A program made the position numbers and the translations under genes. The notes beneath the pieces were generated by a model. That model had not been told where the DNA came from, did not search any database, and worked only from the letters and a program-made list of their open reading frames with translations. From Candidatus Undinarchaeales archaeon (GTDB lineage Archaea > SpSt-1190 > JASMDC01): DNA of 64,000 nt. Below are positions 9,724-57,134 of this stretch, one piece after another (position 1 is the stretch's first letter; each line of letters begins with the position of its first letter). The DNA lies in NCBI GenBank assembly GCA_030753015.1, contig JASMDC010000010.1:32099-96098 (forward strand). Reading direction: 5' to 3'.

Positions 9724-9927
9724 TCAGGTCCGGAGGGCCAGCTTGATGTCCTTGGCCATAACGGTCTTGCGGCCGCTGTGCCGGGCGATCTGGTTCGCCT
9801 GGTCGGCGACCTCCATGGCATACTCCTCGAGGATCTCTTGCAGGGCCTGAACGCCGCTAACAGCGACGCGCTTGGCGCCAGCGTTCTTCATAAGGCGCGC
9901 AACGGCAGCGAAAGGCAGTTCTGACAT
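9724..9927 (-). CDS. Archaeal histone (HMf-type)
   Basis: A 67-residue single histone fold that packages DNA. The family landmarks are visible: SELPFAAVARLMKNAGAKRV (helix 1 and loop 1), VSGVQALQEILEEYAMEVAD (long central helix), and ARHSGRKTVMAKDIKLALR (loop 2 and helix 3). A longer reading frame to 10440 is spurious; the ATG at 9927 is preceded by a GGTGA Shine-Dalgarno element and a TTATAAAT box. The mRNA therefore has a leader of only a few nucleotides. A perfect hairpin lies after the stop. Confidence 0.96.
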   Translation of the reverse strand: MSELPFAAVARLMKNAGAKRVAVSGVQALQEILEEYAMEVADQANQIARHSGRKTVMAKDIKLALRT

Positions 9928-10042: not shown

Positions 10043-13000
10043 TCACTGCTGGGGATAACGTCGCCTCTGTTGCTGACCCGGCTGTTGTTGCTGTTGGCCC
10101 ATGCCAGCTTGTTGTTGCTGCTGACCCGGTTGTTGTTGCTGCTGACCCGGTTGTTGTTGCTGCTGACCCGGTTGTTGTTGCTGTTGGCCCATGCCAGCTT
10201 GCTGCTGTTGTTGGGGATAGCGCTGGCCGTACTGCTGCTGCTGGTAGCCTCGCTGGTAGTAGCCGGTCTGGGGGCGTCCCTGCATCCCTGGTTGCTGCTG
10301 CTGCATCCCCGGTTGTTGCTGCATCCCCGGCTTCGGCGCAGCTCCTGCTTGCCCCCCTCCTCCAGCCTGGGCGAGCTTGGCCTGGAACGCGTTAGCCACT
10401 CCCGCCTCGCGCATGTAAGCCATATAGCCGACCACACCAAGTAAGGATCCGAGGAGTACGAACACGACGGAGAACCTGACGACCTTCTGGAGCGTGGAGA
10501 GCTCTACCGTGGCCGGCTTGATGGTGTTAGCGACGATGAAGTCGTTCTGCCGCGCAATCACCTTGTTGATGGTGGCGAGGGCCGTATCGTACTCGCCTTC
10601 GAAGTACTGCTCTTCGGCCTCGTTGATCATCTTCTGGATCTCGAGACGGCCGTCCTCGTCCTCCACCTTCCCGATCCGGCTCTTGGCCTCAGAGAGCTTG
10701 TACTCAACCTCCTCGACCATTGTCTCGTTCACATCACCTGATGGCTTCTTCGTGGGCTCCGGTGTGGTACTGGCGCCGGGTGAGGCGGACGGGTCCACGC
10801 TCGTATCAGGGGTGGGACTCGGTCCGGATGTGGGTGTGGTGCTGGGCTTGACCGTGGGCTTCGGTGTCGTCGAGGCCGATGGTGTGACGGTGGCATTGGG
10901 CTTGGTCGTTGGTGTTGCGGTCGCATTGGGGGCGACCGTTGCATTGGGCGAGATTGTGGCATTGGGGGCGACCGTTGCATTGGGCGTGAGAGTAGCGTTG
11001 GGCGTGACGGTGGCGTTTGGAACAGGAGTTGGCGTCGCCGATACATCGGGGGCCTCGATCAGTGCCGTGGTGTTGACGCACCCTTCGTTCTCCAGGGTAT
11101 CGCGACAGCACACCTTGATCGTCTGGTTGCCTGGTGGGAGGTTCAGGATCCAGGAAACCGATGCGTTGGGCGACTCGATGGACGCGTTGCCCTCGAGCAT
11201 GGACGAGAGGGGCGTAGAGCTGTTGATGGTCACGGCGCACCGCTCCACGGGGAGGTAGGCGTCGGCGACGGACGTAGCGTTGACAGTGAGATTGCCGGAC
11301 ACGGCAAGATCAAACGTCGGCGGATCCTGGTCCCGCACGAACACCGTCGTATTGGTGACCGAGTCGTAATCGCTGGAGCAGTTGACCTTCGCGGTGATAT
11401 TGCCCGTGTCGGTGATGCTGAAGGAAAGGTAGGCCGAGCCCTGCTTCTTGCCGCTTTCGAGCATGTCCAGCACGGGACCCTTGGTACCGTTCTCGTACAC
11501 CAGTCGGCCGGAGCATGATGCTATGTGCTTGCTTTTGTAATCGGCATAGATCATCGCAGTACGGTCGGTGATCGGCTCGATCGGGCGCACGGTGACGTTG
11601 ATGGTACCATTGAGGCCGAGCGCCTGGAACGTGCTGTTGTCGGTGACGTTCCAGCGGCCGCCCTCGTTGATGACCCATGCCCGTGCCGTGATATAGGTCC
11701 CTGCCGTGAGATTGGCCTGGGCGATGGTGAACGTGATGTCGACGAGCCCGCTCTTCCCCGATAGGTCCTCGGTGACGTTCTTGAACTCACCAGTCGCGTT
11801 GTGTTCGAACACGGCGCTCGTAAGAGCGAGGGCGTCACCCGCCTTAACATCGATATCGACGTCCTGGTCGGCCGTGACACTGTCCGGGATGTCGCTGATA
11901 GTGATGTTGGGCGCTCCCGGGTAGCGGAGCAGGGAGATGGTGGAGTTGTTGTTCCCAAGGACGCCCACCAGGAGGTCGCCGTGGCTGCCAAGTGCGATGG
12001 AGGCGATCCGTTCGCCGGGCCACGTACGCGTCGCCAGCTCGTTGAGGTCCTTGTCGAGCAGCACGACCTTGCCACCTTCACCGGGCTTACCGCCACCTGC
12101 CACGAGCTCGATCTCATCGGAGGAGATCGCACCGGGGATGAGGTCGCCGAATGTGGCGATGGAGAGCGGAGCGATGTCGGTCACGGGGGTGAGAGGGGTA
12201 CCCGTGGCTGCGTACTTTGTGATGTCCGTGACGAGCACGTTCTGGTCCTGGATGCCCAGGATGATCTCCTTGAACCCGTAATCGGTCCCGATGGGGCCGT
12301 CATTGTCGATGATGTCGGCGGCGACGATCCTGCGGATATCGGTCCAACTGGGATCGGTGACCGATTTGATCTCGTCGAAGGCCTGAAGCCCGCGCTGGAG
12401 GATCACCAGCTTCGAGGTCACTCCGTTGCTCAGGGCCACGACGACCTCCTTGGTTCCGATGGCCTCCTCGTAGAGATTCTTGACATCGAGGTCCGAGACC
12501 GTGGTGTTCTCGTCCCAGGTCGTGACGGGAATGCTGCCGTCGAAGAGCTCGAGGTCCTTGGTGAGGATCTTGAGGAAAGGCCGCTTCTCATCGGCCGCCA
12601 CAGGGAGGTAGAATCCCCCGACCAGGATCTCAAGGGTTGTGCTCGAGATCTCGATGTCGGCGACATGGAGGGCGGTCGCGTAGGTCATGCGTCCGTCATG
12701 CGTCCAGTTCAGCTGCTTGACCATGTTGAGCTCACGGTTGAACACGATCACCTGGGATGTGACGTTCGTCGGATCGGTGGTGTTGTAGTTGAAGTTGGCC
12801 GTCACGACGATCTCCTTGAGGTCGTCGCCGTCGAGGTCCACGACCTCCATATCAGTGAACTGGTAGCCCCGTCCTAACAGGTCCCAGTTCATCAGCGACT
12901 TGACGGTCGTGGAGGGATCGGCCTCGTTAGCGAAGAAGATGAACGCCTTGTCCTTGGTCCCCGCGGGAGCTAATATGTGCCCGGCCATGACGATGGTGTC

Positions 13001-13159
13001 CGGCTCGCCGGGCCCCAGGGGCGTCTTGGCCACCTTGAGGATCTGGATATCGCCTGAGGACGTGTCGCTGGCGGTCTCGATGAGGGTGTAGGCGGCGAGG
13101 GCCGGTCGTAGGAGTAGAAGTATAAGAACTCCCAGTACCAAGAGGCGTCCCCTCTTCAT
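10043..13159 (-). CDS. Large surface protein: beta ectodomain, Asn/Thr/Pro stalk, one TM helix, Gln-rich cytoplasmic tail
   Basis: A 1038-residue protein of unknown function. It has a signal peptide (residues 1-22, ending ALA), an FG-GAP/propeller-like region to about residue 420, and Ig-like beta segments with many NxT/NxS sequons. A low-complexity stalk (TPNAT/APNAT units, then TTPKP/PSASPG, about 700-790) is followed by a short acidic helical segment and one TM helix near residue 905 (VVFVLLGSLLGVVGYMAYM). The roughly 110 residues after it should face the cytoplasm and are repeats of QQQQQPG, GMQQQ and AGMGQ. The ectodomain could be heavily N-glycosylated. Its neighbour upstream is a macroglobulin. 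The ATG at 13159 has GGAGGT about 10 nt before it. Confidence 0.85.
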   Translation of the reverse strand: MKRGRLLVLGVLILLLLRPALAAYTLIETASDTSSGDIQILKVAKTPLGPGEPDTIVMAGHILAPAGTKDKAFIFFANEADPSTTVKSLMNWDLLGRGYQFTDMEVVDLDGDDLKEIVVTANFNYNTTDPTNVTSQVIVFNRELNMVKQLNWTHDGRMTYATALHVADIEISSTTLEILVGGFYLPVAADEKRPFLKILTKDLELFDGSIPVTTWDENTTVSDLDVKNLYEEAIGTKEVVVALSNGVTSKLVILQRGLQAFDEIKSVTDPSWTDIRRIVAADIIDNDGPIGTDYGFKEIILGIQDQNVLVTDITKYAATGTPLTPVTDIAPLSIATFGDLIPGAISSDEIELVAGGGKPGEGGKVVLLDKDLNELATRTWPGERIASIALGSHGDLLVGVLGNNNSTISLLRYPGAPNITISDIPDSVTADQDVDIDVKAGDALALTSAVFEHNATGEFKNVTEDLSGKSGLVDITFTIAQANLTAGTYITARAWVINEGGRWNVTDNSTFQALGLNGTINVTVRPIEPITDRTAMIYADYKSKHIASCSGRLVYENGTKGPVLDMLESGKKQGSAYLSFSITDTGNITAKVNCSSDYDSVTNTTVFVRDQDPPTFDLAVSGNLTVNATSVADAYLPVERCAVTINSSTPLSSMLEGNASIESPNASVSWILNLPPGNQTIKVCCRDTLENEGCVNTTALIEAPDVSATPTPVPNATVTPNATLTPNATVAPNATISPNATVAPNATATPTTKPNATVTPSASTTPKPTVKPSTTPTSGPSPTPDTSVDPSASPGASTTPEPTKKPSGDVNETMVEEVEYKLSEAKSRIGKVEDEDGRLEIQKMINEAEEQYFEGEYDTALATINKVIARQNDFIVANTIKPATVELSTLQKVVRFSVVFVLLGSLLGVVGYMAYMREAGVANAFQAKLAQAGGGGQAGAAPKPGMQQQPGMQQQQPGMQGRPQTGYYQRGYQQQQYGQRYPQQQQQAGMGQQQQQPGQQQQQPGQQQQQPGQQQQQAGMGQQQQQPGQQQRRRYPQQ

Positions 13160-13292: not shown

Positions 13293-16200
13293 CTATCCCG
13301 CAACGGTGACCTCACCGGCCGCACTTTCTGCCGTTATCGCCGGGTTGTAGTAGGCGTAGGCCTTGCTCACCGGGATCTTGGCCTTCACCGGAAAGAGCGA
13401 CATCATCTTGAAGGAGAGGGCGAGCTCCTTATCTCTGGGCAGGTCGTCGATGTACAGTACGATCTTGCGCCCGGCCGTCTCGAACCGCATGATGGTGCCA
13501 TCCTCCAAGAGCGTGTCGAGTGAACCGGGATTGGCAGCGAATCCCGTGGGCACAGCGACGTCCACAAGGAGCATACCTGTGGAGGAACCCGAGCCGCGGT
13601 ACGTCACCGACACGTCCACGTCGATGAGGGCGGAGACGGCCACATCGGCCGTGTCATAAGTGACCTGAAGGTCGAGGTCCGGCGTCGGTGCGGCCTCGAG
13701 CAGGGCGGGCTCATGCCAGATACTGACGACCTGGGTGGACACCTCGCCGGAACCGTCGCCCACGAGCGAGACCGTGGCCGTGCCGCTGGGGACCTCAACG
13801 GTCTGGAGCACGTCGAAGTTGTCCTGATTAACATCCAGAGCGGCCACCTCGGTCCCGTCCGCGAGCACCCTGACGCTGAGATCGACCTCCCGGGCTTGTG
13901 AGCGAGCGGCGAGCATGAGTGTCTTGAAGGCCATCACCGTGTCCTGGGTGGAGCCGTACCCGCCGCGGCTGTTGCGCTGCGAGTGTATCCACTTGACGAT
14001 GCCGGCGGCCTCGGGACGCTTGAGCTCCATGAGGAGGATGGCAGCGTACGAAGCGGTCTCCACGGCCACGGTCGCGGGCTGGACGTGCAGGTCCTTGCCC
14101 TCGGTCACGGGCGCACCGAACGACGTCCCCTTCTCCCCCACCTGGGAGAGGTCGAGGACCATGTCGGCTGCCCGCTCGGCATCGGGCGAGGCTAGCCTGT
14201 TGAGGGCGAGCCCGGCGATGGAAAGGGCGTACGCGTCGCTCTTCGCGCTGTCGAGTTCGGCCTCCAGATAGGAGCGCGCTTTGTCGAGCACACCAGAGGG
14301 TGCTCGGCCGTAGTCGGAGAGGGCGAGCACGGTGTAGGCCGTGAGGCCGAAGGTGCCGGAGAGGCCGCCGGAGAGGTCCTTATGACAGAGGAACCCGACA
14401 GGTGCCCATGAGCCATCGGCACCCTGGTGGCTCACGATCCAGTCGGCGGTGCGGTCCATCACGCCCTCGTCGATGGTCATGAGCTCGCGGGCACCGCTGA
14501 AGGTCATAAGGACGAAGGCGGTCAGCCACAGGCTCCCCTCGGGATCTGAGTTACCGAAGGCGGAGAATGAGCCGTCAGTTCGCTGGAAGGTCAGCTCCCG
14601 TTGGTACCCCGTCTGCATGAGGAACTCCGACTTGGCGCGGATCTCGGGAGTGAGCTGGTCGCTTTGCTTGAGGTAGCGGAGCATCTCCGTGTTAGGCGCC
14701 ATCCTGATCATGGTCTGCTCGCCGCATCCGGTGGGGAGGGTTAGGAGGTTCTCGACACCGGTGATCGCCTGGGCGGCCAGGCTAGGCGTTACGTGCACGA
14801 GCACCTTGTCCGAGTCTGGGACGAGATCGACGGGCATGGACACGTCAACGTCGGTGCGCTGGCCGGCCGAGAGCATCGCGTTCTCCACCGACTCGCGACG
14901 GGTGCCCTCGGGATCCACGATGAGGGTCTTTACGACCGCGTCGGCCTTGTTCGGGCCCCTGGCCGTGATGCGCACCTTCCTGGTGCCGACCTTCGTGGGC
15001 CGGATGACGTACGTGACGGACCGGACGCCACTGGGCTCGACCTCCACCTCGGCGTCCGCGCCGGACACCAGGTCGTACCAGTCGCCGCCCTCCAGCGTCA
15101 CCTGGACCTTCTGGGGCACACCCAGGTAGTTGTACACCTGGACCTTGACCGGGAACTCCTCGCCGCGGATGACCGCGTATGGGAGGTCGGGATCCGCAAA
15201 GAACTCCTGGAACACCTTCAGGCTCCCCTCTGCGATGCCGAGACCTGCTGACGACGAGGATACCGCGTGGAGCCTCCATGTGGTGATGGAGTCTGGTACC
15301 GAGAGCGACATGGTGGCCGTTCCGTCGTCTGCGGTCTCCAAGTCAGGCACCCACATCCACGTCTCCGGGAAGAACTGGCGCACTCGCTCGACCTCGGCGA
15401 GCTCCTGGCCGTCGCTATCGTCGGCTGCCTGCGTCTTCTTTTCCATGGGCGCTGCTGCCATCATCCTCTTTGGAACCGCCATGACCGCTTTTTCGACCAT
15501 GTCGAATTCCATCGCCTCCTCGAAGAGACCACCGGGCGCCATGCCCCCGCGCATACCGATATCGGCCTCCTGCGTGCGTGGCACCACGAGGTCGTCCGAG
15601 GCGAGAACTATCAGCCCTGCCTCCTCCAGCGTCTCCCACGCGCCCTGCGGGGGTTTGTACGATGGCCCCCACCGATTGATATCGGGCTTCGGATGTGCCT
15701 CGGCGGACGGCTCCATGAACCGCCGCTCCAGCTCGTCGAACACCTGGCGGAGATTGAGGCGACCCTCGCTGAGGGCGAACACCGATTCGTCCACGATGGC
15801 GAACCCTATCTCGGACCTGCGCTGGGCGTCGAAGGACACAGTGACCGTGTCCCCCGGTGCCGCCTCATCCTTGTCGAATTCAGCGGTGAGCTCTACCGGG
15901 AGCTTCAGCTCAACATCGAAGGGCAGTGTGTCTGCGGCCACTTCGCTATCGGGATTGATGCGATAGGCCACGATCTTGGCCGACGGTGCCATGGTGGGCG
16001 TGACGGCGAAGGAGATAGCGTTACCGTCGCTCGCACCCGAGAACACCGTGCGCCCTCCGGCTACGACGTCGTAGAATGTCGTGCCCGGGAAGGTGGCGTG
16101 GGCCTCGGCCTCGAACAGCGTTCCGATCCCGATAACGCCTCTGGTCTTCTGGGCAAGATGGATGAACGAGGAGCTTGGCGAGTAGGCCAGTGTGAGGTCG

Positions 16201-17945
16201 AGCGAGGCGGTGGTCCCCTGGGCCGCAGCGGATACCGATCCCTTCTGAGTAGTGTTGGGGGGCGTGTAGGTCACAAGGGCCATACCGTTCTTCGTCTCGA
16301 CCGTCCGATCCGTTGATGTCCCCTCGCTCCACATGTCGTCGCTGAAGGCGGTCGACAGGACAACTTCCGCATCCACGGGCACGCCATCGGGCGTTTTGGT
16401 GATGACCAGGAGGTCAAAGGGCAGCCCGGGCTTGATCGTCGGGCTCTCGGCGATGAGCTGGATGACCAGCGGCGACTCGACGACCTTCAGAAGACGGGAT
16501 TCCTTCTCCTCGTGGTCGCCCGTGTCGGTGACGGTGATGTTGAGCATCAGCGAGCCCGCCCCTCCGGCGCCCACGGTCCCTGCAGCGAAACCAGCGGCAG
16601 CGAGATCGAACTCGGTGTTCCCCTCATCATCGAGCTCGGCGGTGTATGTAGCGTACTCCTCCCACACCCCGCGGTACACCGACGCTACGATCTCGGCCGT
16701 CCCCTTCACGGGCTTGCCAAAGAAGTAATTTCCTGACACCGAGCCCTTAACCTTCTCGTCGACGAGCACCCATTCCTTCTCCATGTCGACCTCGATCTTG
16801 AACTTGGGGAGCACGTACTTCTCCACGCGCACGTCCACCGTCGCCTCGGCGTCGCCCGATGTCGCCGTGACCTTCCAGGTGCCAAGGTTGAGCTCGGTGG
16901 CCAGTGGGAGGTCGAAGGACAAAGAGCCCCAGCCGGAGGACGTGTCCACCTTCTTGAAGACCTTGATGCCCTTCGCGTCCTGGACGCTCACCTCGAGGGG
17001 TGCTGACACGGGGCGAAGCTCGGCATCGAGCACCAGCACGCGGCCGCGGATCGTCTGTCCCGGCTTGTAGATCGGCTTGTCCGTCTCGATGAACAGCAGG
17101 CGTCCGACCTTGATGGAAACGTCGCCGGTCAGGTGGTCCGGGCCGGACTCGATTATGAGTCGGTAACCGCCCTCGGGCACATCAGGGACGGTGAAGGGAG
17201 CGAGCACGTGGCCGTCGGTACCGGTCTTCCCCTCGTAGACCATGGAGGGGGGTTCGTCGTCCTTGTTGAGGAGGAGGAGGGTGATAGGGGTGTCCGGGAC
17301 AGGGCCCCCTTTCTCATCTGTGACGGTGACCGTAGCGGCCGCGCTCCCTCCAGCGTAGAGTGTATCAGTGGTGACGAGCATGACCCGGTGGTCGGTGGCA
17401 GGGATGAGCGTCGTGGCGGTCGTACCCTTGATGTCCACGGCATGGGCGGCCAGTTCCGTCGTGTGCTCCTTGAACCGGGCGAGCAGGTCGGTACAGAGCG
17501 CGGTCTGGTCCCGGCCCCAACCGGCCACGACGATCGCGTAACGATTATCGGAGAGCCTGTTCTTGTACGCGCGCACCACGGCCCGCGGCTCTGTACAAGG
17601 CCAGGTTCGACCTGCACAGAAGTCCCACTTGGTGAGCCTGAGCTCTCGGGCGAAGCTGTTGACGGCGGGCCCGCCCACTACGATGAGATGGGCCTCCTGC
17701 CGGCTCCATGGCGTCAACTGGTCATCAGCGGACGAGATGGCGTCGAAGCCTGCGGCACGCAAACCCTTCTCCAGGGCCTTTGCAGCGGTCTCGTCATCAG
17801 CGTGGGCGGATGCGCCCCAGACGACGATCACCGTGTCGTCACCTATTCCCGCGATGGCCTCGTTGACGGACACTGCGGCAAGTCCCTGGCTGCATATCAG
17901 TGCCAAGATCAATAGGAAATGGAACGGTCGTACTCGGGCTCCCAT
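13293..17945 (-). CDS. Alpha-2-macroglobulin/complement-like protein with thioester and C-terminal receptor-binding-type domain
   Basis: A 1550-residue exported protein. A signal peptide (about 1-24) precedes a Cys-containing N-terminal domain to about 170 and tandem macroglobulin domains with IETDKPIYKPGQTIRG (about 287) and VEKYVLPKFKIEVD. A putative bait segment (about 790-850) is followed by RQFFPETWMWVPD (about 858) and AVIRGEEFPVKVQVYNYLG. The thioester motif PTGCGEQTMIRMAPN is near 1073, then GYQRELTFQRTDGSFSAFG in the thioester domain. The end (IPVSKAYAYYNP) matches the A2M receptor-binding fold. The order and wording of these blocks resemble animal A2M/CD109/C3 more than bacterial YfhM. 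Likely role: covalent trapping of foreign proteases at the cell surface. The transcript is probably leaderless. Confidence 0.93.
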   Translation of the reverse strand: MGARVRPFHFLLILALICSQGLAAVSVNEAIAGIGDDTVIVVWGASAHADDETAAKALEKGLRAAGFDAISSADDQLTPWSRQEAHLIVVGGPAVNSFARELRLTKWDFCAGRTWPCTEPRAVVRAYKNRLSDNRYAIVVAGWGRDQTALCTDLLARFKEHTTELAAHAVDIKGTTATTLIPATDHRVMLVTTDTLYAGGSAAATVTVTDEKGGPVPDTPITLLLLNKDDEPPSMVYEGKTGTDGHVLAPFTVPDVPEGGYRLIIESGPDHLTGDVSIKVGRLLFIETDKPIYKPGQTIRGRVLVLDAELRPVSAPLEVSVQDAKGIKVFKKVDTSSGWGSLSFDLPLATELNLGTWKVTATSGDAEATVDVRVEKYVLPKFKIEVDMEKEWVLVDEKVKGSVSGNYFFGKPVKGTAEIVASVYRGVWEEYATYTAELDDEGNTEFDLAAAGFAAGTVGAGGAGSLMLNITVTDTGDHEEKESRLLKVVESPLVIQLIAESPTIKPGLPFDLLVITKTPDGVPVDAEVVLSTAFSDDMWSEGTSTDRTVETKNGMALVTYTPPNTTQKGSVSAAAQGTTASLDLTLAYSPSSSFIHLAQKTRGVIGIGTLFEAEAHATFPGTTFYDVVAGGRTVFSGASDGNAISFAVTPTMAPSAKIVAYRINPDSEVAADTLPFDVELKLPVELTAEFDKDEAAPGDTVTVSFDAQRRSEIGFAIVDESVFALSEGRLNLRQVFDELERRFMEPSAEAHPKPDINRWGPSYKPPQGAWETLEEAGLIVLASDDLVVPRTQEADIGMRGGMAPGGLFEEAMEFDMVEKAVMAVPKRMMAAAPMEKKTQAADDSDGQELAEVERVRQFFPETWMWVPDLETADDGTATMSLSVPDSITTWRLHAVSSSSAGLGIAEGSLKVFQEFFADPDLPYAVIRGEEFPVKVQVYNYLGVPQKVQVTLEGGDWYDLVSGADAEVEVEPSGVRSVTYVIRPTKVGTRKVRITARGPNKADAVVKTLIVDPEGTRRESVENAMLSAGQRTDVDVSMPVDLVPDSDKVLVHVTPSLAAQAITGVENLLTLPTGCGEQTMIRMAPNTEMLRYLKQSDQLTPEIRAKSEFLMQTGYQRELTFQRTDGSFSAFGNSDPEGSLWLTAFVLMTFSGARELMTIDEGVMDRTADWIVSHQGADGSWAPVGFLCHKDLSGGLSGTFGLTAYTVLALSDYGRAPSGVLDKARSYLEAELDSAKSDAYALSIAGLALNRLASPDAERAADMVLDLSQVGEKGTSFGAPVTEGKDLHVQPATVAVETASYAAILLMELKRPEAAGIVKWIHSQRNSRGGYGSTQDTVMAFKTLMLAARSQAREVDLSVRVLADGTEVAALDVNQDNFDVLQTVEVPSGTATVSLVGDGSGEVSTQVVSIWHEPALLEAAPTPDLDLQVTYDTADVAVSALIDVDVSVTYRGSGSSTGMLLVDVAVPTGFAANPGSLDTLLEDGTIMRFETAGRKIVLYIDDLPRDKELALSFKMMSLFPVKAKIPVSKAYAYYNPAITAESAAGEVTVAG

Positions 17946-24055: not shown

Positions 24056-25411
24056 TTACTTCTCCTCGTCCTTCTTATCTTCTTCTTCCTTCTCAGGTTC
24101 CTCTTCCTTTTCCTTCTTCTCGGGCACCTTCTTGGCCGACTTCTCCTCTTCCTCTTCTTCTTCCTTCTCAGGCTCCTTGCCCGCAGGAGCATTGGTGATG
24201 AGGGCCAGGAGGGCCGCCACCACGCACAGACCGGCAGCGATGAGGAAGGCCTGGTCGTACACCTGAAGGGTGTCTTTTACATAGCCTCCGAGCATGGGGC
24301 CGAAGATGCCGGCCACACCGTAGGACGTGAACACCCAGCCGTAGTTGATGCCGATGTTCTTGGTGCCGAAGAAATCGGCGGTAGCGGACGGGAAGAGGGC
24401 GAAGTTGCCCCCGAAGTTGAAGCCCACGAGGCAGGCCACGCCCATGATGGCATAGTAACCGGTCACCTGGGTGAGGCCGAACATGGCCCCTGCCTGGAGC
24501 AGGAACATGATCATCATGGCCTTTGCGCGACCGATCTTGTCGGAGGCAGCGCCCCACACGATGCGGCCAAGTCCATTGAAGATGGAGAGCATCCCCACGA
24601 TGGTGATTGCCTTGCCACCGGCATCGGCGATGTTCCCTGCGGTGAGGATATCCTGAGAGAAGCCTTTGATGTGGCCGATGGTCATGAGGCCGGCGGTGGC
24701 CCCTATGATGAACATGAACCAGAGCAGCCAGAACTGCTTGGTGCCCAGCATCTCTCCCCACTCGTAGTTGTACGAGGAGGGGCCGCCCGCCTTGGCAGCA
24801 GGCGGCTCCCATCCCTCGGGCTTGTAGCCCTCGGGCGGGTTCTGGAGCATCTGTGCGGCCAGTGTGACCACCACAAGGAAGGTGATACCAAAGTAGAGGA
24901 ACACGTTGTACAGGCCCGGCTCGGGTGCAGTCGCGATCACGGGGATGAGCTTGGAAAAGATGTACGCGCCAGCACCGAAGCCCGCGACGGCAAGACCCGA
25001 GATGAGCCCCCGCTTGTCGGGGAACCACTTCACGAGGGCGGCGATTGGGCACACGTAGGCGAGGCCGATACCAGCGCCACCGATGATACCATAGGTGAGC
25101 ACGATCCAACCGGTCGTCGGGGGTACGCCCTGACTGGCGAGGATGTAACCGATACCGTACAGGATACCACCTACCGTGGCGACCTTGCGTGGTCCGGCCT
25201 TGTCCTGCCAGCGGCCTGCGAGCACCATGACCACCGCGAAGGTGGCAAGGCCCACGGAGAAGGGCAGCGATGCATCCTGGTGGCTCCATCCGAAACCCGT
25301 TGTGAGCAGGCTCTTGATGGGGCTCCAGGCGTAGATCACGCCCAGGCATAGCTGGATCGCGATAGCGGCTATGACTATGTTCCATCGGTTCGTAGTAGTC
25401 TCTCTTGACAT
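24056..25411 (-). CDS. Oxalate/formate antiporter family MFS carrier, copy 1
   Basis: A 451-residue major facilitator with 12 TM segments. The OFA-family hallmarks are GVIYAWSPIKSLLTTGFGW in TM1, GRWQDKAGPRKVA in loop 2-3, and ALVKWFPDKRGLISG. It ends in a tail of about 45 residues made almost only of Glu and Lys, lying in the cytoplasm. The start at 25411 (MSRETTTNRW) is preferred over 25444 because the TTTTTAAAGG box at 25446-25455 would overlap the longer start. Family members exchange carboxylates such as oxalate, formate or lactate; the actual cargo is unknown. It is a tandem paralogue of the next gene. Confidence 0.88.
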   Translation of the reverse strand: MSRETTTNRWNIVIAAIAIQLCLGVIYAWSPIKSLLTTGFGWSHQDASLPFSVGLATFAVVMVLAGRWQDKAGPRKVATVGGILYGIGYILASQGVPPTTGWIVLTYGIIGGAGIGLAYVCPIAALVKWFPDKRGLISGLAVAGFGAGAYIFSKLIPVIATAPEPGLYNVFLYFGITFLVVVTLAAQMLQNPPEGYKPEGWEPPAAKAGGPSSYNYEWGEMLGTKQFWLLWFMFIIGATAGLMTIGHIKGFSQDILTAGNIADAGGKAITIVGMLSIFNGLGRIVWGAASDKIGRAKAMMIMFLLQAGAMFGLTQVTGYYAIMGVACLVGFNFGGNFALFPSATADFFGTKNIGINYGWVFTSYGVAGIFGPMLGGYVKDTLQVYDQAFLIAAGLCVVAALLALITNAPAGKEPEKEEEEEEEKSAKKVPEKKEKEEEPEKEEEDKKDEEK

Positions 25412-25528
25412 GGGATCAGCTACAGCACGAAACCGCCCTGTCACCTTTAAAAATGTTGATTTGGGGGGCGATGAATCTTTGGAGAATGCCTAATCCATAT
25501 TACTTGGAATTCGAAGTGCTAACCTATT

Positions 25529-26797
25529 CTAATCCGGACCTTCCGATGTTACCTCGCTGACATGGCTCGGAACGGCCTGCGCCAGGACGGATCCCATCAC
25601 GCACAGTCCGCCGGCCGCCAAGAACGCCCTGTCGTAGACGAGCAAGGTGTCTTTGACCCAGCCGCCGAGCATAGGGCCCGCGACCCCCGCCATCCCGTAG
25701 GCGGTGATCACCCAGCCGTAGTTCACGCCTAGGTTCTTGGTCCCGAATAGGTCTGCTGTGGCGGAGGGGAAGAGAGCGAAGTTACCTCCGAAGTTGAAGC
25801 CCACCAGGCAGGCGGCCGCAAGGACGGTATAGTAGGACGAGGTCAGGGTGAGGGCGACCATGGCCCCTGCCTGGAGCAGGAACATGAGGCCCATGGCAGA
25901 GGGCCTTCCGAGCCTGTCGGAAGCGGCGCCCCACACGATTCGGCCAAGGGCATTGAACACGGAGAGCATCCCCACGATGGTGAGGGCCTTGCCCGCTGCG
26001 TCCGTGACACCCTGTGCCTCCAGGACCTCCTGGGAGAAGCCCTTGATGTGGCCGATCGTCATGAGGCCTGCAGTGGCCCCGATGAAGAACATCGCCCAGA
26101 GCAGCCAGAACAGCCGTGTGCGGAGCATCTGGCGCCAGGGGACGTCCGGAGCGGCGTGTGCCGCGGCCTCGCGCGGCGTCGGCACCCATCCCTCGGGACG
26201 GTAGCCCTCGGGGGGATTGCGGAGGAACTGGGCGCCCAAGGTCACGACCACCAGAAAGATCGCACCGAACCAGAGGAACACTGTGTATAGCCCCGGGTCC
26301 GGCGATGTCGCGAGCATGGGGATGAGCTTGGAGAAGATGAACGCGCCAGCACCGAATCCCGCGACGGCAAGACCCGAGATGAGCCCCCGCTTGTCCGGGA
26401 ACCATTTCACCAGGGCGGCGATCGGGCAAACATAAGCGAGCCCGATACCTGCACCGCCGATGATACCGTAGGTGGTCACGAGCCAGGCGAGAGTGGGGGG
26501 ATGACCCAGGCTGGCGAGGAGGTAGCCGAGGCCGTAGAGGATACCGCCCGCAGTGGCCACGCGCCGTGGTCCGACCTTGTCCTGCCACCTGCCGGCGTAC
26601 ACCATGACCGCTGCATTGACCGCGAGGGCGACCGAGAATGGCAGGGATGCCGCGGTATGGCCCCAGCCGAATCCCGTGGTGAGCATGCTCTTGATAGGGC
26701 TCCAGGCATAGACGACACCGAGACAGAGCTGTATGGCGATGGCGGCGATCACTATGGTCCAGCGTTCGGGGATGTGACTGTGCGGCTTCGGGGCCAC
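25529..26797 (-). CDS. Oxalate/formate antiporter family MFS carrier, copy 2
   Basis: A 422-residue MFS carrier closely similar to its downstream neighbour through all 12 TM segments (shared GVVYAWSPIKSMLTTGFGW, ALVKWFPDKRGLISGLAVAG, FPSATADLFGTKN). It lacks the Glu/Lys tail, ending SHVSEVTSEGPD. The start is a GTG at 26797 (VAPKPHSHIPERW). The gap between the copies is 117 nt and contains the TATA box of copy 1, so each appears separately transcribed. Tandem duplication with divergence at the termini suggests different regulation or partners rather than simple dosage. Confidence 0.88.
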   Translation of the reverse strand: MAPKPHSHIPERWTIVIAAIAIQLCLGVVYAWSPIKSMLTTGFGWGHTAASLPFSVALAVNAAVMVYAGRWQDKVGPRRVATAGGILYGLGYLLASLGHPPTLAWLVTTYGIIGGAGIGLAYVCPIAALVKWFPDKRGLISGLAVAGFGAGAFIFSKLIPMLATSPDPGLYTVFLWFGAIFLVVVTLGAQFLRNPPEGYRPEGWVPTPREAAAHAAPDVPWRQMLRTRLFWLLWAMFFIGATAGLMTIGHIKGFSQEVLEAQGVTDAAGKALTIVGMLSVFNALGRIVWGAASDRLGRPSAMGLMFLLQAGAMVALTLTSSYYTVLAAACLVGFNFGGNFALFPSATADLFGTKNLGVNYGWVITAYGMAGVAGPMLGGWVKDTLLVYDRAFLAAGGLCVMGSVLAQAVPSHVSEVTSEGPD

Positions 26798-31549: not shown

Positions 31550-32178
31550 TCATGGATGATCCAGCGAACTCCACGCTCGTTCACATTCATTCCCTTGGAA
31601 CGCACGAGGGGCATGAGCTCCTCCACCGAGGTCGCCCGGTGCTTGATAGCGAGCGCAAGCACATCGATGATCTTCCCCTTCGTCAGGCCCGGCGGACGGC
31701 CAACCCGCGTCCTGAGTTCGGAGCCGCGTCTCTTCATCTGCACACGCCGTTTCCGGCTATTCATGCTGTAGTAGACGGCCGACTTACGGGCGCCCTCGCG
31801 ATAGAGCCGCCCTTTTCCCACACACGAGGACAGGTGGTGATGGATGTTGTCGTGGAGGCGCTGTTTGAGCTCCTTCGCTGTGACTCCTGCGTCGCTGTTC
31901 TCGATGAAGTGGACGATGGTCTCGGAGAGGTTGCCCCAGCGGGAAAAGCGAACTCCCTGGTACTCCCAGAGGTCATGCTCGTCCCATTCAGGGATGTCCG
32001 GCAGCGTGAGCACGCTGCCGTTCCGGTTGAAGCTCGTCAGATAACCTGTGCCCTCGAGCTTCCTCCAGATCGTGCCTTTCGAGCAGTCGAAATGCTCAGC
32101 CAGCTGTGACGCCAGGAGCACCTTGTGATCCCGTAAAAAGGCGATGACATCGTCAGCGGAGATCCGCTCTTTAATCAT
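31510..32178 (-). CDS. IS orfA, helix-turn-helix DNA-binding part of the transposase
   Basis: A 222-residue protein with an N-terminal HTH (LLASQLAEHFDCSKGTIWRK) and a second winged-helix-like segment (FSRWGNLSETIVHFIENS to VGKGRLYREGARKSAVYYSM), followed by basic residues. Its last codons cross an eight-A run (codons ATC AAA AAA AAG) and it stops 18 nt later. The next frame (-1) continues into orfB. This is the standard orfA/orfAB plan, in which orfA alone acts as repressor and the frameshift product is the transposase (family knowledge). Confidence 0.8.
   Translation of the reverse strand: MIKERISADDVIAFLRDHKVLLASQLAEHFDCSKGTIWRKLEGTGYLTSFNRNGSVLTLPDIPEWDEHDLWEYQGVRFSRWGNLSETIVHFIENSDAGVTAKELKQRLHDNIHHHLSSCVGKGRLYREGARKSAVYYSMNSRKRRVQMKRRGSELRTRVGRPPGLTKGKIIDVLALAIKHRATSVEELMPLVRSKGMNVNERGVRWIIHEYDIKKKGFRSGS
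31531..31537 (-). promoter_or_regulatory. Slippery heptamer A_AAA_AAG between orfA and orfB
   Basis: Read on the minus strand in the orfA frame the sequence is A AAA AAG, the classical -1 frameshift heptamer. It sits inside an A8 run (31532-31539). A -1 slip joins orfA directly to the orfB frame, 7 codons before the orfA stop. An indel in the homopolymer is the alternative explanation. Confidence 0.65.
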
Positions 32179-32299
32179 ACTTTTAAGTAAGCATATATCC
32201 TTAAATATATTTTCTTTTTATGCTTACTTTTATGTATCTAGTGCGGCATTTGCCAACAACGTATCAATCTCAGAATTAGTCCGATTACTTCACTACCGT

Positions 32300-32358
32300 C
32301 AACCGATTCTTGACGCTATGGATAATACGTTTCCAAACTGATTACTATATCATTATAA
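32300..32358 (-). repeat. IS right terminal inverted repeat
   Basis: Inner block 32300-32321, 14-nt spacer, outer block 32336-32358. It is the inverted counterpart of 29558-29616. Confidence 0.88.
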
Positions 32359-32460
32359 ATCAATCAACACCCTGGACGCCCGAAATGACGCCGTATAATA
32401 TGCATTATTGCGGCGTGGGCCGATCGGGGTAATTCGGACTCACAAATGGAGGTCATCTGG

Positions 32461-32478
32461 GGCTATAGGGGCGATAAC
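32461..32478 (+). repeat. Imperfect inverted repeat, left arm, flanking the toxin-antitoxin pair
   Basis: GGCTATAGGGGCGATAAC matches the reverse complement of 33229-33246 at 16 of 18 positions; the match extends outward a few bases with one indel. AAATGGAGGTCAT also occurs directly outside both arms (32444-32456 and 33259-33271). Confidence 0.6.
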
Positions 32479-32556
32479 TTATGTGTGCCTCTTACATTTA
32501 TTTGGAGGAAAAAGCGACGTCGCATAACCCCCTGTTATCAGAAGGCGGCTCGTCGT

Positions 32557-32808
32557 TTATTTATAGACCTTCTCTCGATGTCTGATCTTGAGTATGAGTA
32601 CTCCGTCATTGGTCTTCGTGTAGATCACACGATACTTGCCGACGACAAACTTGAACAAGCCTTTGAATTGGCCATGAAGGGGCTTGCCGCTGTTGGGGTC
32701 TTCGCTCAACGCTTTCTCAAGTGAATCAAGGACTCTCTTGGCAGCTTTCTTATCGATGTGTTTCAGGTCCTTGAAGACCGATGCCTTATACTCGATCTTA
32801 GAGGCCAA
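32557..32808 (-). CDS. relE: RelE/ParE-family toxin
   Basis: An 83-residue RelE-like protein. It has the YKASVFKDLKHIDKKAAKR amphipathic N-terminal helix, the GLFKFVVGKYRVIYTK beta-sheet signature and a basic C-terminus (LKIRHREKVYK). RelE toxins cleave mRNA in the ribosomal A site or, in the ParE branch, target gyrase; the basic C-terminal Arg/Lys/Tyr residues favour the ribonuclease branch (inference). The start overlaps the end of the RHH antitoxin gene by 11 nt, so both are made from one mRNA. The flanks are AT-rich compared with the core genome. Confidence 0.88.
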   Translation of the reverse strand: MASKIEYKASVFKDLKHIDKKAAKRVLDSLEKALSEDPNSGKPLHGQFKGLFKFVVGKYRVIYTKTNDGVLILKIRHREKVYK

Positions 32809-33025
32809 GCCTTTCCCTCATCTCATCACTTGAAATGATCTCATCATCCTTGTCGCGAAGCCTATCGAGAGCGATAAGATAATCGACATATTCCTGGAGA
32901 TAGGATTCGATAGCCTTGCGTATGATAAAGGTCTTCGAGCGCTCGAGGGAGGAGGCCATGCTATCTAATTCCTCGACGATTTCATCAGGAAGTCGTATTG
33001 AAACCGTTGTGGTCATGACACTCAC
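32798..33025 (-). CDS. Ribbon-helix-helix antitoxin (CopG/RelB type)
   Basis: A 75-residue antitoxin. The N-terminal TTTVSIRLPDEIVEELDSMA and SKTFIIRKAIESYL form a ribbon-helix-helix DNA-binding dimer unit; the acidic tail (DKDDEIISSDEMRE) should wrap the toxin. The first Met is at 33025, with MTTT at 33016 an equally possible start. Just upstream (33031-33050) two ATTACAA units form a direct repeat that could be the autoregulatory operator. It is co-transcribed with the RelE toxin. Confidence 0.87.
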   Translation of the reverse strand: MSVMTTTVSIRLPDEIVEELDSMASSLERSKTFIIRKAIESYLQEYVDYLIALDRLRDKDDEIISSDEMRERLGL

Positions 33026-35687: not shown

Positions 35688-35822
35688 GGGTGATGCGGCG
35701 CATCCATAAAAAGGCTTCGCCCCCCGACCGTGCGAAAGTGACTCACAGATTCAAAATGTATATATACAGCCTTACCCGCTGGACCCCGGCATCGGGTATG
35801 AAGCCCGAACGGGGTGTGCGAG

Positions 35823-37007
35823 ATGGATATACGGGACGGGAACCTTGGAGCGTATCACACGTACGAGGAGGCGATGGAGGAGATCGAGCGGGTCGCCGCC
35901 GAGAATCCTGACATCGCCAGGGTGGAGACCATCGGTTATTCCACCTACGGCAGACCGATAAAGGCCATCAAGATATCCAAGGACGTGGACGTGGAGGATC
36001 CGGACAAGCCCGAAGTGCTCTACATGGGCCAGACCCACGCTCGTGAGGTCATCTCGGCCGAGGCCAGCCTCGGTGTAGTCGACCGACTCATCGACGGATA
36101 CGGGACCGACGACTACGTCACCGGTCTCGTTGACTCCCGCCAGATCTGGGTCGTGCCCGTGGTCAATCCGGACGGTTCCATGAAGGTCGCAGAGGACGTC
36201 ACCGCGAGGGGCGACTCGTCCTGGCGCGGTAATTGTCGTGACAACAACGGCAACGGGAAGGTCGATGACGGCGACGGTGTCGACCTCAACCGCAACTGGG
36301 CTCGCAACTGGGGCGGCCAGGGTTCCAGCGGGACACCCGGCAGCCAGACCTACCGCGGCCCGGCACCATTCAGCGAGCCCGAGACGGCCGCCATCAAGAA
36401 GCTTGCCGAGGAGCACGACTTCGTCACCTCGGTCTCGTTCCACTCATACTCGGGGCTCATCCTCTATCCACTTGGGTACACGACGACCCCGGCCAAGGAC
36501 GAGGACCTCCTGAGATCGATCGCCGAGAACATGCGCGACCATCAGCCTTACGAGAAATACATAGCCGAGAAGTCCTCGGACCTCTACGTGGCGTCCGGCG
36601 ACTCGGACGACTGGCTCTACGAGGACATGGGCGTGCTCGCATTCACCTTCGAGGTCTACAAGGGGGGTAACAGCTGGTGGAACACATTCAAGCAGTTCAA
36701 TCCACCCGAGGACCGCATCCAGTACCACGTGGACAACGTCGTCCCCGCGGCCCTCTACGCGGCAGAGATCGCTGACGATCCGTCCCAGGCGCTCATCGAG
36801 CGGGAAGAGCGGGACGCCCAGGGGCCGCCCGCGCCCGAGGGTCCCCGCGATCCGGCCGACTACTGGCCTGAGGACGACAACCCATACTTCGGCGGCTTAC
36901 CGGGCGACTTCATGCTCAATGAGCTCACCCCCGGGTACCGCGGGACCGACGAGGACCCGGCCGAGGCCTACCGCCGCGCCGAGTGCGAGCCCGACTGCGA
37001 AGGATAG
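35823..37007 (+). CDS. Zinc carboxypeptidase (M14), copy 1, no signal peptide
   Basis: A 394-residue metallocarboxypeptidase that removes C-terminal residues. The zinc ligands are H72 and E75 in QTHARE and H207 in SFHSYSG; R157 in DLNRN binds substrate and E277 in FTFEVYKG is the general base. The chain starts directly with the catalytic domain (MDIRDGNLGAYHTYEE), with no signal or pro-peptide, so it should act in the cytoplasm. It ends in an acidic/Pro-rich extension of about 60 residues. Promoter ATGTATATATAC is at 35757-35768. The ATG at 35814 in the same frame is possible, but the paralogue starts at the same MDIRDGN. Confidence 0.9.
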   Translation: MDIRDGNLGAYHTYEEAMEEIERVAAENPDIARVETIGYSTYGRPIKAIKISKDVDVEDPDKPEVLYMGQTHAREVISAEASLGVVDRLIDGYGTDDYVTGLVDSRQIWVVPVVNPDGSMKVAEDVTARGDSSWRGNCRDNNGNGKVDDGDGVDLNRNWARNWGGQGSSGTPGSQTYRGPAPFSEPETAAIKKLAEEHDFVTSVSFHSYSGLILYPLGYTTTPAKDEDLLRSIAENMRDHQPYEKYIAEKSSDLYVASGDSDDWLYEDMGVLAFTFEVYKGGNSWWNTFKQFNPPEDRIQYHVDNVVPAALYAAEIADDPSQALIEREERDAQGPPAPEGPRDPADYWPEDDNPYFGGLPGDFMLNELTPGYRGTDEDPAEAYRRAECEPDCEG

Positions 37008-37171: not shown

Positions 37172-38260
37172 ATGGACATTCGGGACGGTAACCTTGGAGC
37201 GTATCATACGTATGAAGAGGCCATGGAGGAGATCGAGCGGGTAGCTGCAGAGCACCCGGACATCGCCAGGATCGAGACCATCGGTTATTCCACCTACGGT
37301 CGACCGATCAAGGCTATCAAGATCTCCAAGGACGTGGACGTAGAGGATCCTGACAAACCTGAAGTGCTGTACATGGGCCAGACCCACGCCCGCGAGGTCA
37401 TCTCGGCCGAGGTGAGCCTGGGTGTCATCGACCGTCTCGTCGACGGTTACGGGACCGACGACTACGTAACCGGTCTTGTGGACTCACGCCAGATCTGGGT
37501 GGTGCCCGTGGTCAACCCCGACGGCGCCGTGCAGGTAGCAAAAGAGGTCACCGAGACGGGCGACTCGTCCTGGCGCGGTAACTGCCGTGACAACAACGGC
37601 AGCGGCACGGTCGACTCCGGCGACGGCGTGGACCTCAATCGCAACTTCGGGCGAGGTTGGGGCGGTTCCGGCTCCAGCGGCAGCCCCGGCAGCCAGACCT
37701 ACCGCGGCCCAGCACCCTTCAGTGAGCCGGAGACGGCGGCCATCAAGGACCTTGTGGACAAGCATGACTTCGTCACCAGCGTGTCGTTCCACTCATACTC
37801 GGGACTCATCCTCTACCCCACCGCGTACACCAATGATCCGGCCGAGGACCACGACCTGCTGAAGTCCATCGCCGAGAACATGCGGGACCGCCAGCCCCAC
37901 GAGAAGTACGTGGCTCAGAAGTGCACTGACCTCTACGTGGCATCGGGCATCTCCGACGATTGGCTCTACGAGGACAAAGGCGTCATGGCCTTCACCTTCG
38001 AGATCTACAAGGGCGGCAGTGGTTGGTGGAACACCTTCAAGCGGTTCAATCCGCCCGAGGAGGATATCCAGTACCACGTGGACAACAACGTTGGTGCGGC
38101 CCTCTACGCGGCTGAGATCGCCGACGATCCGAGCCAGGCACTGACCGAGCGTGCCGAGCGCGACGCCAAGGGCGGACCCTTCGACCGCTCGGTGTCGACG
38201 TACGAGGACTTCGCCGAATATATCGGCCACGAGACGGAAGGGTACGACGTCCCTGCCTAG
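37172..38260 (+). CDS. Zinc carboxypeptidase (M14), copy 2, no signal peptide
   Basis: A 362-residue tandem paralogue of the preceding gene. It keeps all catalytic residues (QTHARE, DLNRNF, SFHSYSG, FTFEIYKG) and is nearly identical over the first 110 residues. It differs mainly in substrate-side loops (NNGSGTVDSGDG, TAYTNDPAEDH) and has a shorter, different C-terminal tail ending EGYDVPA. Like copy 1 it lacks a signal peptide. The pair arose by duplication that included the promoter. Different loops suggest different C-terminal preferences (inference). Confidence 0.9.
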   Translation: MDIRDGNLGAYHTYEEAMEEIERVAAEHPDIARIETIGYSTYGRPIKAIKISKDVDVEDPDKPEVLYMGQTHAREVISAEVSLGVIDRLVDGYGTDDYVTGLVDSRQIWVVPVVNPDGAVQVAKEVTETGDSSWRGNCRDNNGSGTVDSGDGVDLNRNFGRGWGGSGSSGSPGSQTYRGPAPFSEPETAAIKDLVDKHDFVTSVSFHSYSGLILYPTAYTNDPAEDHDLLKSIAENMRDRQPHEKYVAQKCTDLYVASGISDDWLYEDKGVMAFTFEIYKGGSGWWNTFKRFNPPEEDIQYHVDNNVGAALYAAEIADDPSQALTERAERDAKGGPFDRSVSTYEDFAEYIGHETEGYDVPA

Positions 38261-47524: not shown

Positions 47525-48661
47525 GTGCGCATCGACCGCCTCACCGTGCTCACCTTCGTGATCATACCTCTCGTCTTTGCACTCCTCCTCTTCCGAATCA
47601 TCACCTCCGGTGACGCCGAGGTCACCGCGCACACCGTAAATACCTTCCAGACCTTCCTCCTGCGGAACCTGAGCATCCTCTTCATCGGAGTGTTCCTGCT
47701 CCTCCTGCTCCTCCTGCTCGAGGACCGTCTCGAGTACGGCGTCATCATGACGCTCCACCGGTTCCATCTCATCCCCCGTGTGGTGCCTCCAGAGGCATAC
47801 ACGGCCATCCGCGACGAAGCGCTCGACCGCATCGAGGCCACACGCGTGCTCTCCCACCACCTCCGCCTCTCTGCGCTGGGACCCACGGACCATCCGCTCC
47901 GGGCGCTGGAGTTCTGGCTGGCACGCCTTTTCTCCCATGATCCCTTCATCAAGATCCCCGAGCGGTTCGTCGAGGTGTCCGAGCATTTCCGGCTACTGGA
48001 GGAGGACGAGGTCAACGACTGGGAGCTGCGGGAGACCTACGCGGACATCTCGCTGTCGGTGCTGGGCCGCACCCTCTCCATCATGGGACGTCAGCTGGCC
48101 GCGGACGTGGCTTACGAGGGCATGATGTTAGCCATCATCCTGGGGGCGCTGTTCATGGGCTACTCCGTCCTGGTGAACGAACCGCTCTTCTGCTTGGGCT
48201 GCACAGAGGCCGAGGCCCAAGCGGCCGCTGCTCTCAATCTGGGCGGACTGGTCCCCATTCTCAACGTCGGCATCCTCATGCTCATCATGGGGCTCGTCTA
48301 CCAGTTCTACGCCATCGTCAACGGTGTGGAGATCCCCCTGCTCCGGCTGCGGATCCTGGACGCGTTCCACGACCATGCCGAGGTGCTGGCCGAGGTGGAA
48401 CGCCGTATAGTGGAGGGCGAGGCCCATGGCGAGCGTGGCTGGGTGCTGCGCGAGTACCTCAAGCTCGCATACCAGTTCCTGTACGAGGCGCTCATCGCCT
48501 GGTGGGAGGGGAAGGAGAACGAGGCAGCAGCGTACGCCTACGCATGCGACGAGCTGTGCAAGGAGATCAAGGCCATGCACGCGGACTTCGAGTCCCACGC
48601 CGAGCTGCTCACGCGCGAGCATCGTGTAGTGCACTACGGCGAGGAGAGCGAATGGTTCTAG
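47525..48661 (+). CDS. Uncharacterised membrane protein with four TM helices
   Basis: A 378-residue protein. TM helices lie at about 7-27, 45-65 (FIGVFLLLLLLLL), about 200-220 and 240-265 (PILNVGILMLIMGLVYQFY), with soluble helical regions between and after. No known family is evident. The GTG at 47525 is exactly 26 nt after the centre of CATTTAAACC and is taken as a leaderless start; the longer frame to 47459 has no promoter. It converges on radB, and the two stop codons share the palindrome CTAG at 48658-48661. Confidence 0.65.
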   Translation: MRIDRLTVLTFVIIPLVFALLLFRIITSGDAEVTAHTVNTFQTFLLRNLSILFIGVFLLLLLLLLEDRLEYGVIMTLHRFHLIPRVVPPEAYTAIRDEALDRIEATRVLSHHLRLSALGPTDHPLRALEFWLARLFSHDPFIKIPERFVEVSEHFRLLEEDEVNDWELRETYADISLSVLGRTLSIMGRQLAADVAYEGMMLAIILGALFMGYSVLVNEPLFCLGCTEAEAQAAAALNLGGLVPILNVGILMLIMGLVYQFYAIVNGVEIPLLRLRILDAFHDHAEVLAEVERRIVEGEAHGERGWVLREYLKLAYQFLYEALIAWWEGKENEAAAYAYACDELCKEIKAMHADFESHAELLTREHRVVHYGEESEWF

Positions 48662-56985: not shown

Positions 56986-57134
56986 GGTCCGTACGCCCGA
57001 TACGATCCGGCGTGAGCGTCAGCATTTTCATCGAGGAGCGGGTTTGTGTCGCCCCAGAGCCCATGTGGAGGCCGCTCGAGGCCGGGAGGGAGATAATAAA
57101 AAGACTATGATACTCGTGGTGGCAGGTGCATCAC

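What the first reader, a model, noticed from the sequence alone, without database searches (positions are those of the whole stretch)
13293..17945. Animal-like thioester macroglobulin in an archaeon
Block order and wording follow animal A2M/CD109/C3: YKPGQTIRGRV, VEKYVLPKF, FFPETWMWVP, VIRGEEF, GCGEQTMIRMAPN, LTPEIRAKSE, a GYQRELTF segment and a C-terminal receptor-binding-type domain with YAYYNP. Bacterial YfhM-type proteins differ in order and lack much of this. Either there was transfer between eukaryotes and archaea, or this branch predates eukaryotic complement-type proteins. The Met/Lys/Arg-rich stretch before FFPETW is a candidate bait region.
Basis: partly seen in the sequence, partly recalled or inferred. 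Interest (0 to 1): 0.75.

Follow-up and report, generated by a model that had tools for sequence, protein, structure and literature searches.

The report
S-layer-anchored CD109-type archaeal α-macroglobulin
An archaeon carries a cell-surface protein built like the animal protease-trap and complement proteins; the type turns out to be scattered through many bacteria and archaea, so it is not a transfer from animals, but this copy is unusual in being fused to a domain like the one that anchors the microbe's own protein coat.

Summary
Confirmed: ORF 13293-17945 (minus strand, 1550 aa) is a complete α2-macroglobulin-family protein (MG2-MG4, bait domain, MG7, thioester domain, receptor-binding-type domain), closest in the PDB by sequence and fold to human CD109. 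It carries the four signatures of the animal mechanism: CGEQ thioester, C3/CD109-type catalytic His, R-x-[FY]-F-P 'plug' and YVLP 'channel'. The putative bait is hypervariable and predicted disordered.

Not confirmed: uniqueness and a eukaryote-archaeon link. A scan of 84,980 genomes gave 98 relatives (80 kept) in Methanosarcinales, Altiarchaeota, Planctomycetota, Chloroflexota, Actinomycetota, Omnitrophota and Acidobacteriota; all 31 examined in full share the architecture. The ML tree puts this protein with archaeal ones; animals group with Chloroflexota/Actinomycetota. AU tests reject window+animals (p=7e-5) and archaea+animals (p=2e-6). Archaeal α2-macroglobulins were already reported (PMC8416519).

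New here: an N-terminal domain shared with this genome's own S-layer-type proteins (top fold match: M. voltae S-layer anchor, 9FSA), absent from all 80 relatives. Most likely a surface-anchored, protease-triggered covalent trap. The wider point, that CD109-type proteins with the animal trigger are widespread in prokaryotes, conflicts with published statements that this type arose in animals.

The parts
13293..17945 (-). CD109-type alpha-2-macroglobulin gene, 1550 aa
17874..17945 (-). Sec-type signal peptide aa 1-24 (no lipobox, unlike Methanosarcinales and Altiarchaeota relatives)
   Evidence: sequence directly; relatives' N-termini with LSGC-type lipobox
17388..17873 (-). S-layer anchor-type domain, aa 25-186
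   Evidence: phmmer to own S-layer-type proteins 6e-25 and 9e-14, none of 80 relatives; Pfam S_layer_C 20.0 bits, below its 23.9 cut-off; AF2 model, Foldseek top hit 9FSA E=1e-4, TM 0.60/0.71
17097..17387 (-). MG1-type domain, aa 187-283 (about 96 residues present in all relatives aligned)
   Evidence: domain assignment inferred from position
16824..17096 (-). MG2 domain, aa 284-374
   Evidence: PF01835
16806..16817 (-). MG2-MG3 linker YVLP, aa 377-380: wall of the plug channel
   Evidence: Y and P invariant in 32 of 32; role from A2ML1 structure PMC9156758
16593..16820 (-). MG3 domain, aa 376-451
   Evidence: PF17791
16227..16460 (-). MG4 domain, aa 496-573
   Evidence: PF17789
15771..16097 (-). 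A2M_BRD (MG5/MG6), aa 617-725
   Evidence: PF07703
15387..15566 (-). candidate bait region, aa 794-853
   Evidence: hypervariable, predicted disordered; cleavage not tested
15366..15380 (-). BR-C plug R856-Q-F-F-P860
   Evidence: R856, F859, P860 invariant in 32 of 32; role from PMC9156758
15093..15362 (-). MG7 (Pfam A2M), aa 862-951
   Evidence: PF00207
13917..14771 (-). thioester domain (TED), aa 1059-1343
   Evidence: PF07678 E=1e-63; helical in the AF2 model
14715..14726 (-). thioester motif C1074-G-E-Q1077
14382..14384 (-). catalytic His1188 (C3/CD109 type; Asn in human A2M)
13329..13583 (-). receptor-binding-type domain (MG8/RBD), aa 1455-1539
   Evidence: PF07677 54 bits

Best explanation
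A secreted, cell-surface-held, probably monomeric alpha-macroglobulin of the CD109 type. The N-terminal S-layer-anchor-type domain holds it in or under the archaeon's S-layer. A protease from outside (competitor, predator, or misdirected own enzyme) that cuts the exposed bait (about aa 794-853) frees the R-x-F-F-P plug from the MG2/MG3 channel; the ring collapses and the thioester (C1074/Q1077) is exposed; His1188 turns it into a reactive acyl-imidazole that bonds hydroxyl or amine groups of the protease, which is tied down and sterically blocked at the cell surface. Shown by computation: architecture, predicted fold, motifs, variable disordered bait, kinship, S-layer-domain homology. Inferred from animal relatives: conformational trigger, thioester chemistry, protease as target. 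Inferred: localisation and monomeric state.
For: All domains in order; AF2 model of aa 351-1550 closest to native CD109 and A2ML1, better to native (TMq 0.58-0.61) than to cleaved forms (about 0.3), VIA Z 39.6 to A2ML1 and 35.0 to CD109. CGEQ, H1188, R856/F859/P860 and Y377/P380 conserved in 32 of 32; mechanism and acyl-imidazole chemistry from PMC9156758. Bait 12% identity between flanks of 67%, pLDDT under 50. Anchor domain; 9FSA is the M. voltae S-layer anchor region. Relatives in Methanosarcinales and Altiarchaeota start with lipobox-like signal peptides, so surface anchoring is a common theme. No conserved operon partner, as expected of a stand-alone inhibitor.
Against: No experiment. Pfam score of the anchor domain is under its cut-off and its AF2 model rests on 3 sequences (mean pLDDT 69.8, five models differ). 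The CGEQ and FPETW conservation is partly built in by the scan patterns; R856, H1188 and Y377/P380 are not. The His-type thioester also fits a complement-like surface tag.
Confidence: 0.66

Rival explanations
1. Complement/TEP-like surface tag: after cleavage the thioester bonds hydroxyls of foreign cells, viruses or glycans rather than the protease, marking or coating them.
For: C3/TEP1/CD109-type His rather than the Asn of A2M, which allows hydroxyl targets (PMC9156758); archaeal A2M loci have been proposed to act in conflict and immunity (PMC8416519).
Against: No anaphylatoxin or C345C domain in the Pfam scan, no conserved partner genes, no phagocyte or lytic pathway known in archaea (own knowledge); A2ML1 has the same His and is a protease inhibitor (PMC9156758).
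Confidence: 0.18
2. Structural or adhesive S-layer protein: a macroglobulin scaffold used for cell-cell or surface adhesion through the thioester, without protease trapping.
For: S-layer-type domain; the downstream gene 10043-13159 also looks like a surface protein.
Against: Full conservation of the plug, channel and His that serve a proteolytic trigger, with a bait kept hypervariable.
Confidence: 0.1
3. Gene transfer between an animal and this archaeon.
For: 33% identity to human CD109 over about 700 aa and shared wording.
Against: Up to 55% identity to Methanosarcinales proteins; tree and AU tests; codon usage like neighbours.
Confidence: 0.02
4. Bacterial contig binned with an archaeal genome by mistake.
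For: Genome 3.85 Mb against 0.6-1.1 Mb in its class, 5% contamination estimate, no 16S.
Against: Anchor domain shared with S-layer-type proteins on three other contigs; histone-fold and Rad51-like genes on the same contig; kin are archaeal.
Confidence: 0.03

Closest known systems
Human CD109 (PDB 8s3o) and A2ML1 (7q1y): animal alpha2-macroglobulin family
   Same: Domain order MG2 to MG8 with bait in MG6 and TED in the CUB region; CGEQ, catalytic His, plug and channel motifs; 33% identity; best PDB match by sequence and fold
   Different: Extra N-terminal S-layer-type domain; no C-terminal hydrophobic tail such as a GPI-anchored protein needs; tree places it with archaea, away from animals
Methanosarcinales and Altiarchaeota alpha2-macroglobulins (e.g. 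Methanolobus; group reported in PMC8416519)
   Same: Same clade, 46-51% identity over full length, same architecture and motifs
   Different: They begin with lipoprotein-type signal peptides and lack the S-layer-type domain
Enterobacterial type I alpha2-macroglobulin YfhM/ECAM, Salmonella Sa-A2M
   Same: Same superfamily fold and a CxEQ thioester (CLEQ in YfhM)
   Different: Extra MG0/NIE domains and altered ring (PMC9156758, PMC12939704), next to pbpC, no RxFFPETW plug and no YVLP channel motif by pattern, no A2M_recep hit in the E. coli control genome; 15% identity in the fold match
Methanococcus voltae S-layer anchor region (PDB 9FSA)
   Same: Fold of aa 26-186, TM 0.60/0.71, 24% identity
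   Different: There split by an insert (aa 24-75 and 484-576) and part of a lattice protein; here continuous and fused to a macroglobulin

Membership tests
alpha2-macroglobulin family of the animal (CD109/A2ML1) type | MG2-MG3-MG4-BRD-MG7-TED-RBD in this order | tested here: met
alpha2-macroglobulin family of the animal (CD109/A2ML1) type | CGEQ internal thioester motif | tested here: met
alpha2-macroglobulin family of the animal (CD109/A2ML1) type | plug-in-channel residues (R-x-Y/F-F-P and Y-x-x-P) | tested here: met
   against PMC9156758
alpha2-macroglobulin family of the animal (CD109/A2ML1) type | flexible, variable bait inserted in MG6 | tested here: met
   (prediction only)
alpha2-macroglobulin family of the animal (CD109/A2ML1) type | bait cleavage leads to covalent protease trapping | not testable with these tools
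   needs protein
CD109 (orthologue of the animal protein) | C-terminal GPI-anchor signal | tested here: not met
   C-terminus ...ITAESAAGEVTVAG has no hydrophobic tail
CD109 (orthologue of the animal protein) | groups with animal proteins in a tree | tested here: not met
   (AU p=7e-5)
Complement C3/C4/C5 | anaphylatoxin and C345C (NTR) domains | tested here: not met
   no hit in Pfam scan up to E=1
Bacterial type I A2M (YfhM/ECAM) | extra N-terminal MG0/NIE domains and pbpC neighbour | tested here: not met
   N-terminus is an S-layer-type domain plus MG1; no conserved neighbours
Archaeal S-layer anchor domain (PF05124 S_layer_C) | score above the Pfam cut-off | tested here: not met
   20.0 bits against 23.9
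Archaeal S-layer anchor domain (PF05124 S_layer_C) | homology to, or fold of, S-layer anchor domains | tested here: met

The most novel reading that the evidence does not exclude
The CD109-type alpha-macroglobulin, with its plug-in-channel trigger and His-activated thioester, arose in prokaryotes, and the animal alpha2-macroglobulin/complement superfamily descends from one such bacterial protein (nearest sampled: Chloroflexota/Actinomycetota), the reverse of the published view that the type originated in animals and that bacterial A2Ms came from animals. This archaeon represents a separate archaeal branch that has been fitted to the S-layer.
Probability: 0.45. Interest if true: 0.75.

Novelty: new variant of a known kind. 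Interest (0 to 1): 0.45.

Why it matters
PMC9156758 (2022) places the origin of the CD109-like ancestor of complement and α2-macroglobulins inside animals, calls bacterial A2Ms mechanistically distinct, and repeats that they are thought to come from animals by horizontal transfer. A wide prokaryotic clade with the complete animal trigger, within which the sampled animals branch, would overturn that and make the origin of complement-type immunity testable with simple microbial proteins. The S-layer-type fusion also suggests where an archaeal macroglobulin works: at the cell envelope, shielding it from proteases.

Tried and rejected
Eukaryote-archaeon transfer: rejected by AU tests. Rooting on YfhM: its branch is 10 changes per column long, so GCFEQ-type paralogs were used instead. 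Conserved operon partner: none beyond Methanolobus-level synteny. The downstream surface gene 10043-13159 as part of the system: it has its own TATA-like box (TTTATAAA) and no relative beside other A2M genes. 16S to name the organism: none found. Homologs in the other 9 held genomes of its phylum: none. Removing the long C3 and TEP1 branches: same grouping. Literature search for a description of CD109-type prokaryotic proteins: only PMC8416519 touches archaeal members; Budd 2004 itself was not held.

Full report
What is there. ORF 13293-17945 (-) encodes 1550 aa. Pfam gives MG2, MG3, MG4, A2M_BRD, A2M, TED_complement and A2M_recep in animal order, all over their cut-offs. Phmmer against the PDB ranks human CD109 first (2e-122), then A2M, A2ML1, C3; with the C-terminal half alone YfhM comes last at 1e-5. 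Identity to CD109 and A2M over aa 843-1550 is 33% and 32%. An AlphaFold2 model of aa 351-1550 (mean pLDDT 77) matches native CD109 best (Foldseek 1e-69), native A2ML1 with VIA Z 39.6; E. coli and Salmonella A2M are weaker, 15% identity.

Is it unique? No. A scan of genome contigs with patterns from the window and two human proteins confirmed 98 relatives; the best 80 were kept: Methanosarcinales (Methanolobus, Methanococcoides, ANME-2, Methanoperedens), Altiarchaeota, Planctomycetota (mostly Phycisphaerae), Omnitrophota, Chloroflexota, Actinomycetota, Acidobacteriota. Of 32 full-length proteins scanned (window included), 32 have MG2, MG3, BRD, A2M, TED and A2M_recep. A2M_recep is found in 24 of 294 genomes of the Methanolobus phylum, 3 of 29 of the Altiarchaeota phylum, 31 of 246 Planctomycetota (some in short proteins), 15 of 251 Chloroflexota, and 0 of 14 control genomes. 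Archaeal α2-macroglobulins, including a Methanolobus protein judged close to bacterial ones, were reported in 2021 (PMC8416519).

Kinship. Careful ML tree, 49 rows, 688 columns, rooted on GCFEQ-type paralogs: the window protein is sister to Methanosarcinales plus Altiarchaeota (88/83); this clade is sister to Planctomycetota/Acidobacteriota/Omnitrophota (96/95); the five animal proteins are one clade (100/99) joined to Chloroflexota plus Actinomycetota (100/98). AU tests reject window+animals (7e-5), archaea+animals (2e-6), and, more weakly, all prokaryotes without animals (0.017; 0.011 after removing C3 and TEP1). CD109 is 36-38% identical to its best Chloroflexota matches against 33% to the window. 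Cautions: the retrieval patterns favour CD109-like proteins, only the 80 most window-like were kept, animal sampling is five proteins, and animal branches are long. So a prokaryotic origin of the animal proteins is the better-supported reading of this sample but is not established.

Mechanism signatures. The A2ML1 structures (PMC9156758) identify a plug (R730 to P734) threaded through a channel (Y214 to P217 and others) as the trigger released by bait cleavage. The window has R856-QFF-P860 and Y377-VL-P380. R856, F859, P860, Y377 and P380 are invariant in 32 of 32 prokaryotic proteins, as are CGEQ and H1188, the C3/CD109/A2ML1-type His that gives an acyl-imidazole (chemistry PMC9156758). CGEQ and FPETW conservation is partly by construction of the scan; R856, H1188 and Y377/P380 are not. 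YfhM shows none of the plug, channel or His motifs by the same patterns. The bait position, aa 801-848, is 12% identical among archaeal relatives while its flanks (MG6a, MG7) are 67%, and aa 794-861 are predicted disordered. The Met/Lys/Arg-rich make-up itself is not conserved.

The unusual part. aa 25-186 are not macroglobulin. They match proteins of this same genome on contigs C64, C25 and C35 (6e-25, 9e-14, 1e-6), of which the C25 protein is an S_layer_C protein at 67 bits, and none of the 80 relatives. The domain's own Pfam score is below cut-off (20.0 against 23.9). Its AF2 model (mean pLDDT 69.8, three sequences) has as top PDB match 9FSA, the anchor region of the Methanococcus voltae S-layer protein (E=1e-4, TM 0.60/0.71). 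Relatives in Methanosarcinales and Altiarchaeota instead show lipobox-like N-termini. Inference: the same task, holding the macroglobulin at the cell surface, solved by an S-layer domain here and by a lipid there.

Is it archaeal? Archaeal-type histone at 9724-9927, Rad51-like at 48661-49416, LOR/SDH-type enzyme at 57126-58355; TATA-like sequences upstream of this gene and the next; codon usage nearest of all genes tested to the window average (0.058), so no sign of recent import. The bin lacks 16S and is 3.85 Mb against 0.6-1.1 Mb for its class, which leaves a small doubt.

Verdict. Real, well-described observation; interpretation half right. The protein is a new variant (S-layer-type fusion) of a type that is more widespread in prokaryotes than the literature I could read acknowledges. 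Shown: domains, motifs, fold prediction, kinship, domain homology. Inferred: trigger, chemistry, target, location.

Noticed in passing
L012:6236-11374 (-), genome contig C20: A second macroglobulin of the same genome (1712 aa, GCFEQ thioester, RAFFPETL plug, YVLPKF) has about eight predicted membrane helices (aa 683-927) inserted where the bait region sits; GCFEQ-type proteins of two bacteria (L129, L131) lack them, and no GCFEQ-type relative was seen in 323 searched archaeal genomes.
   Followed up: partly
L013:5804-13306 (-), genome contig C95: A third macroglobulin (2500 aa) whose thioester domain lacks the CxEQ motif, with MG10-like and C-terminal membrane parts and a Met-rich stretch before MFPETFLW.
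   Followed up: partly
whole genome G000: The genome (3.85 Mb, 62% GC in the window) is several times larger than the nine other held genomes of its class (0.6-1.1 Mb); 5% contamination estimate and no archaeal 16S found.
   Followed up: no
10043-13159 (-): Surface protein of 1038 aa downstream of the macroglobulin, ending in a membrane helix and a long Q/G/P-rich repeat tail predicted inside the cell; it has its own TATA-like box.
   Followed up: partly
35814-37007 and 37172-38260 (+): Tandem near-copies beginning MDIRDGNLGAYHTYEEAMEEIERVAAE, looking like zinc carboxypeptidases by sequence; a recent duplication.
   Followed up: no
24056-25444 and 25529-26797 (-); 55448-56176 and 56248-56985 (+): Two further tandem paralog pairs (a transporter-like pair and a small-protein pair) in the same window.
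   Followed up: no
32144-33025: Short low-GC3 patch with two overlapping small genes that look like a RelE-type toxin and a ribbon-helix-helix antitoxin, amid GC3 of about 0.8.
   Followed up: no
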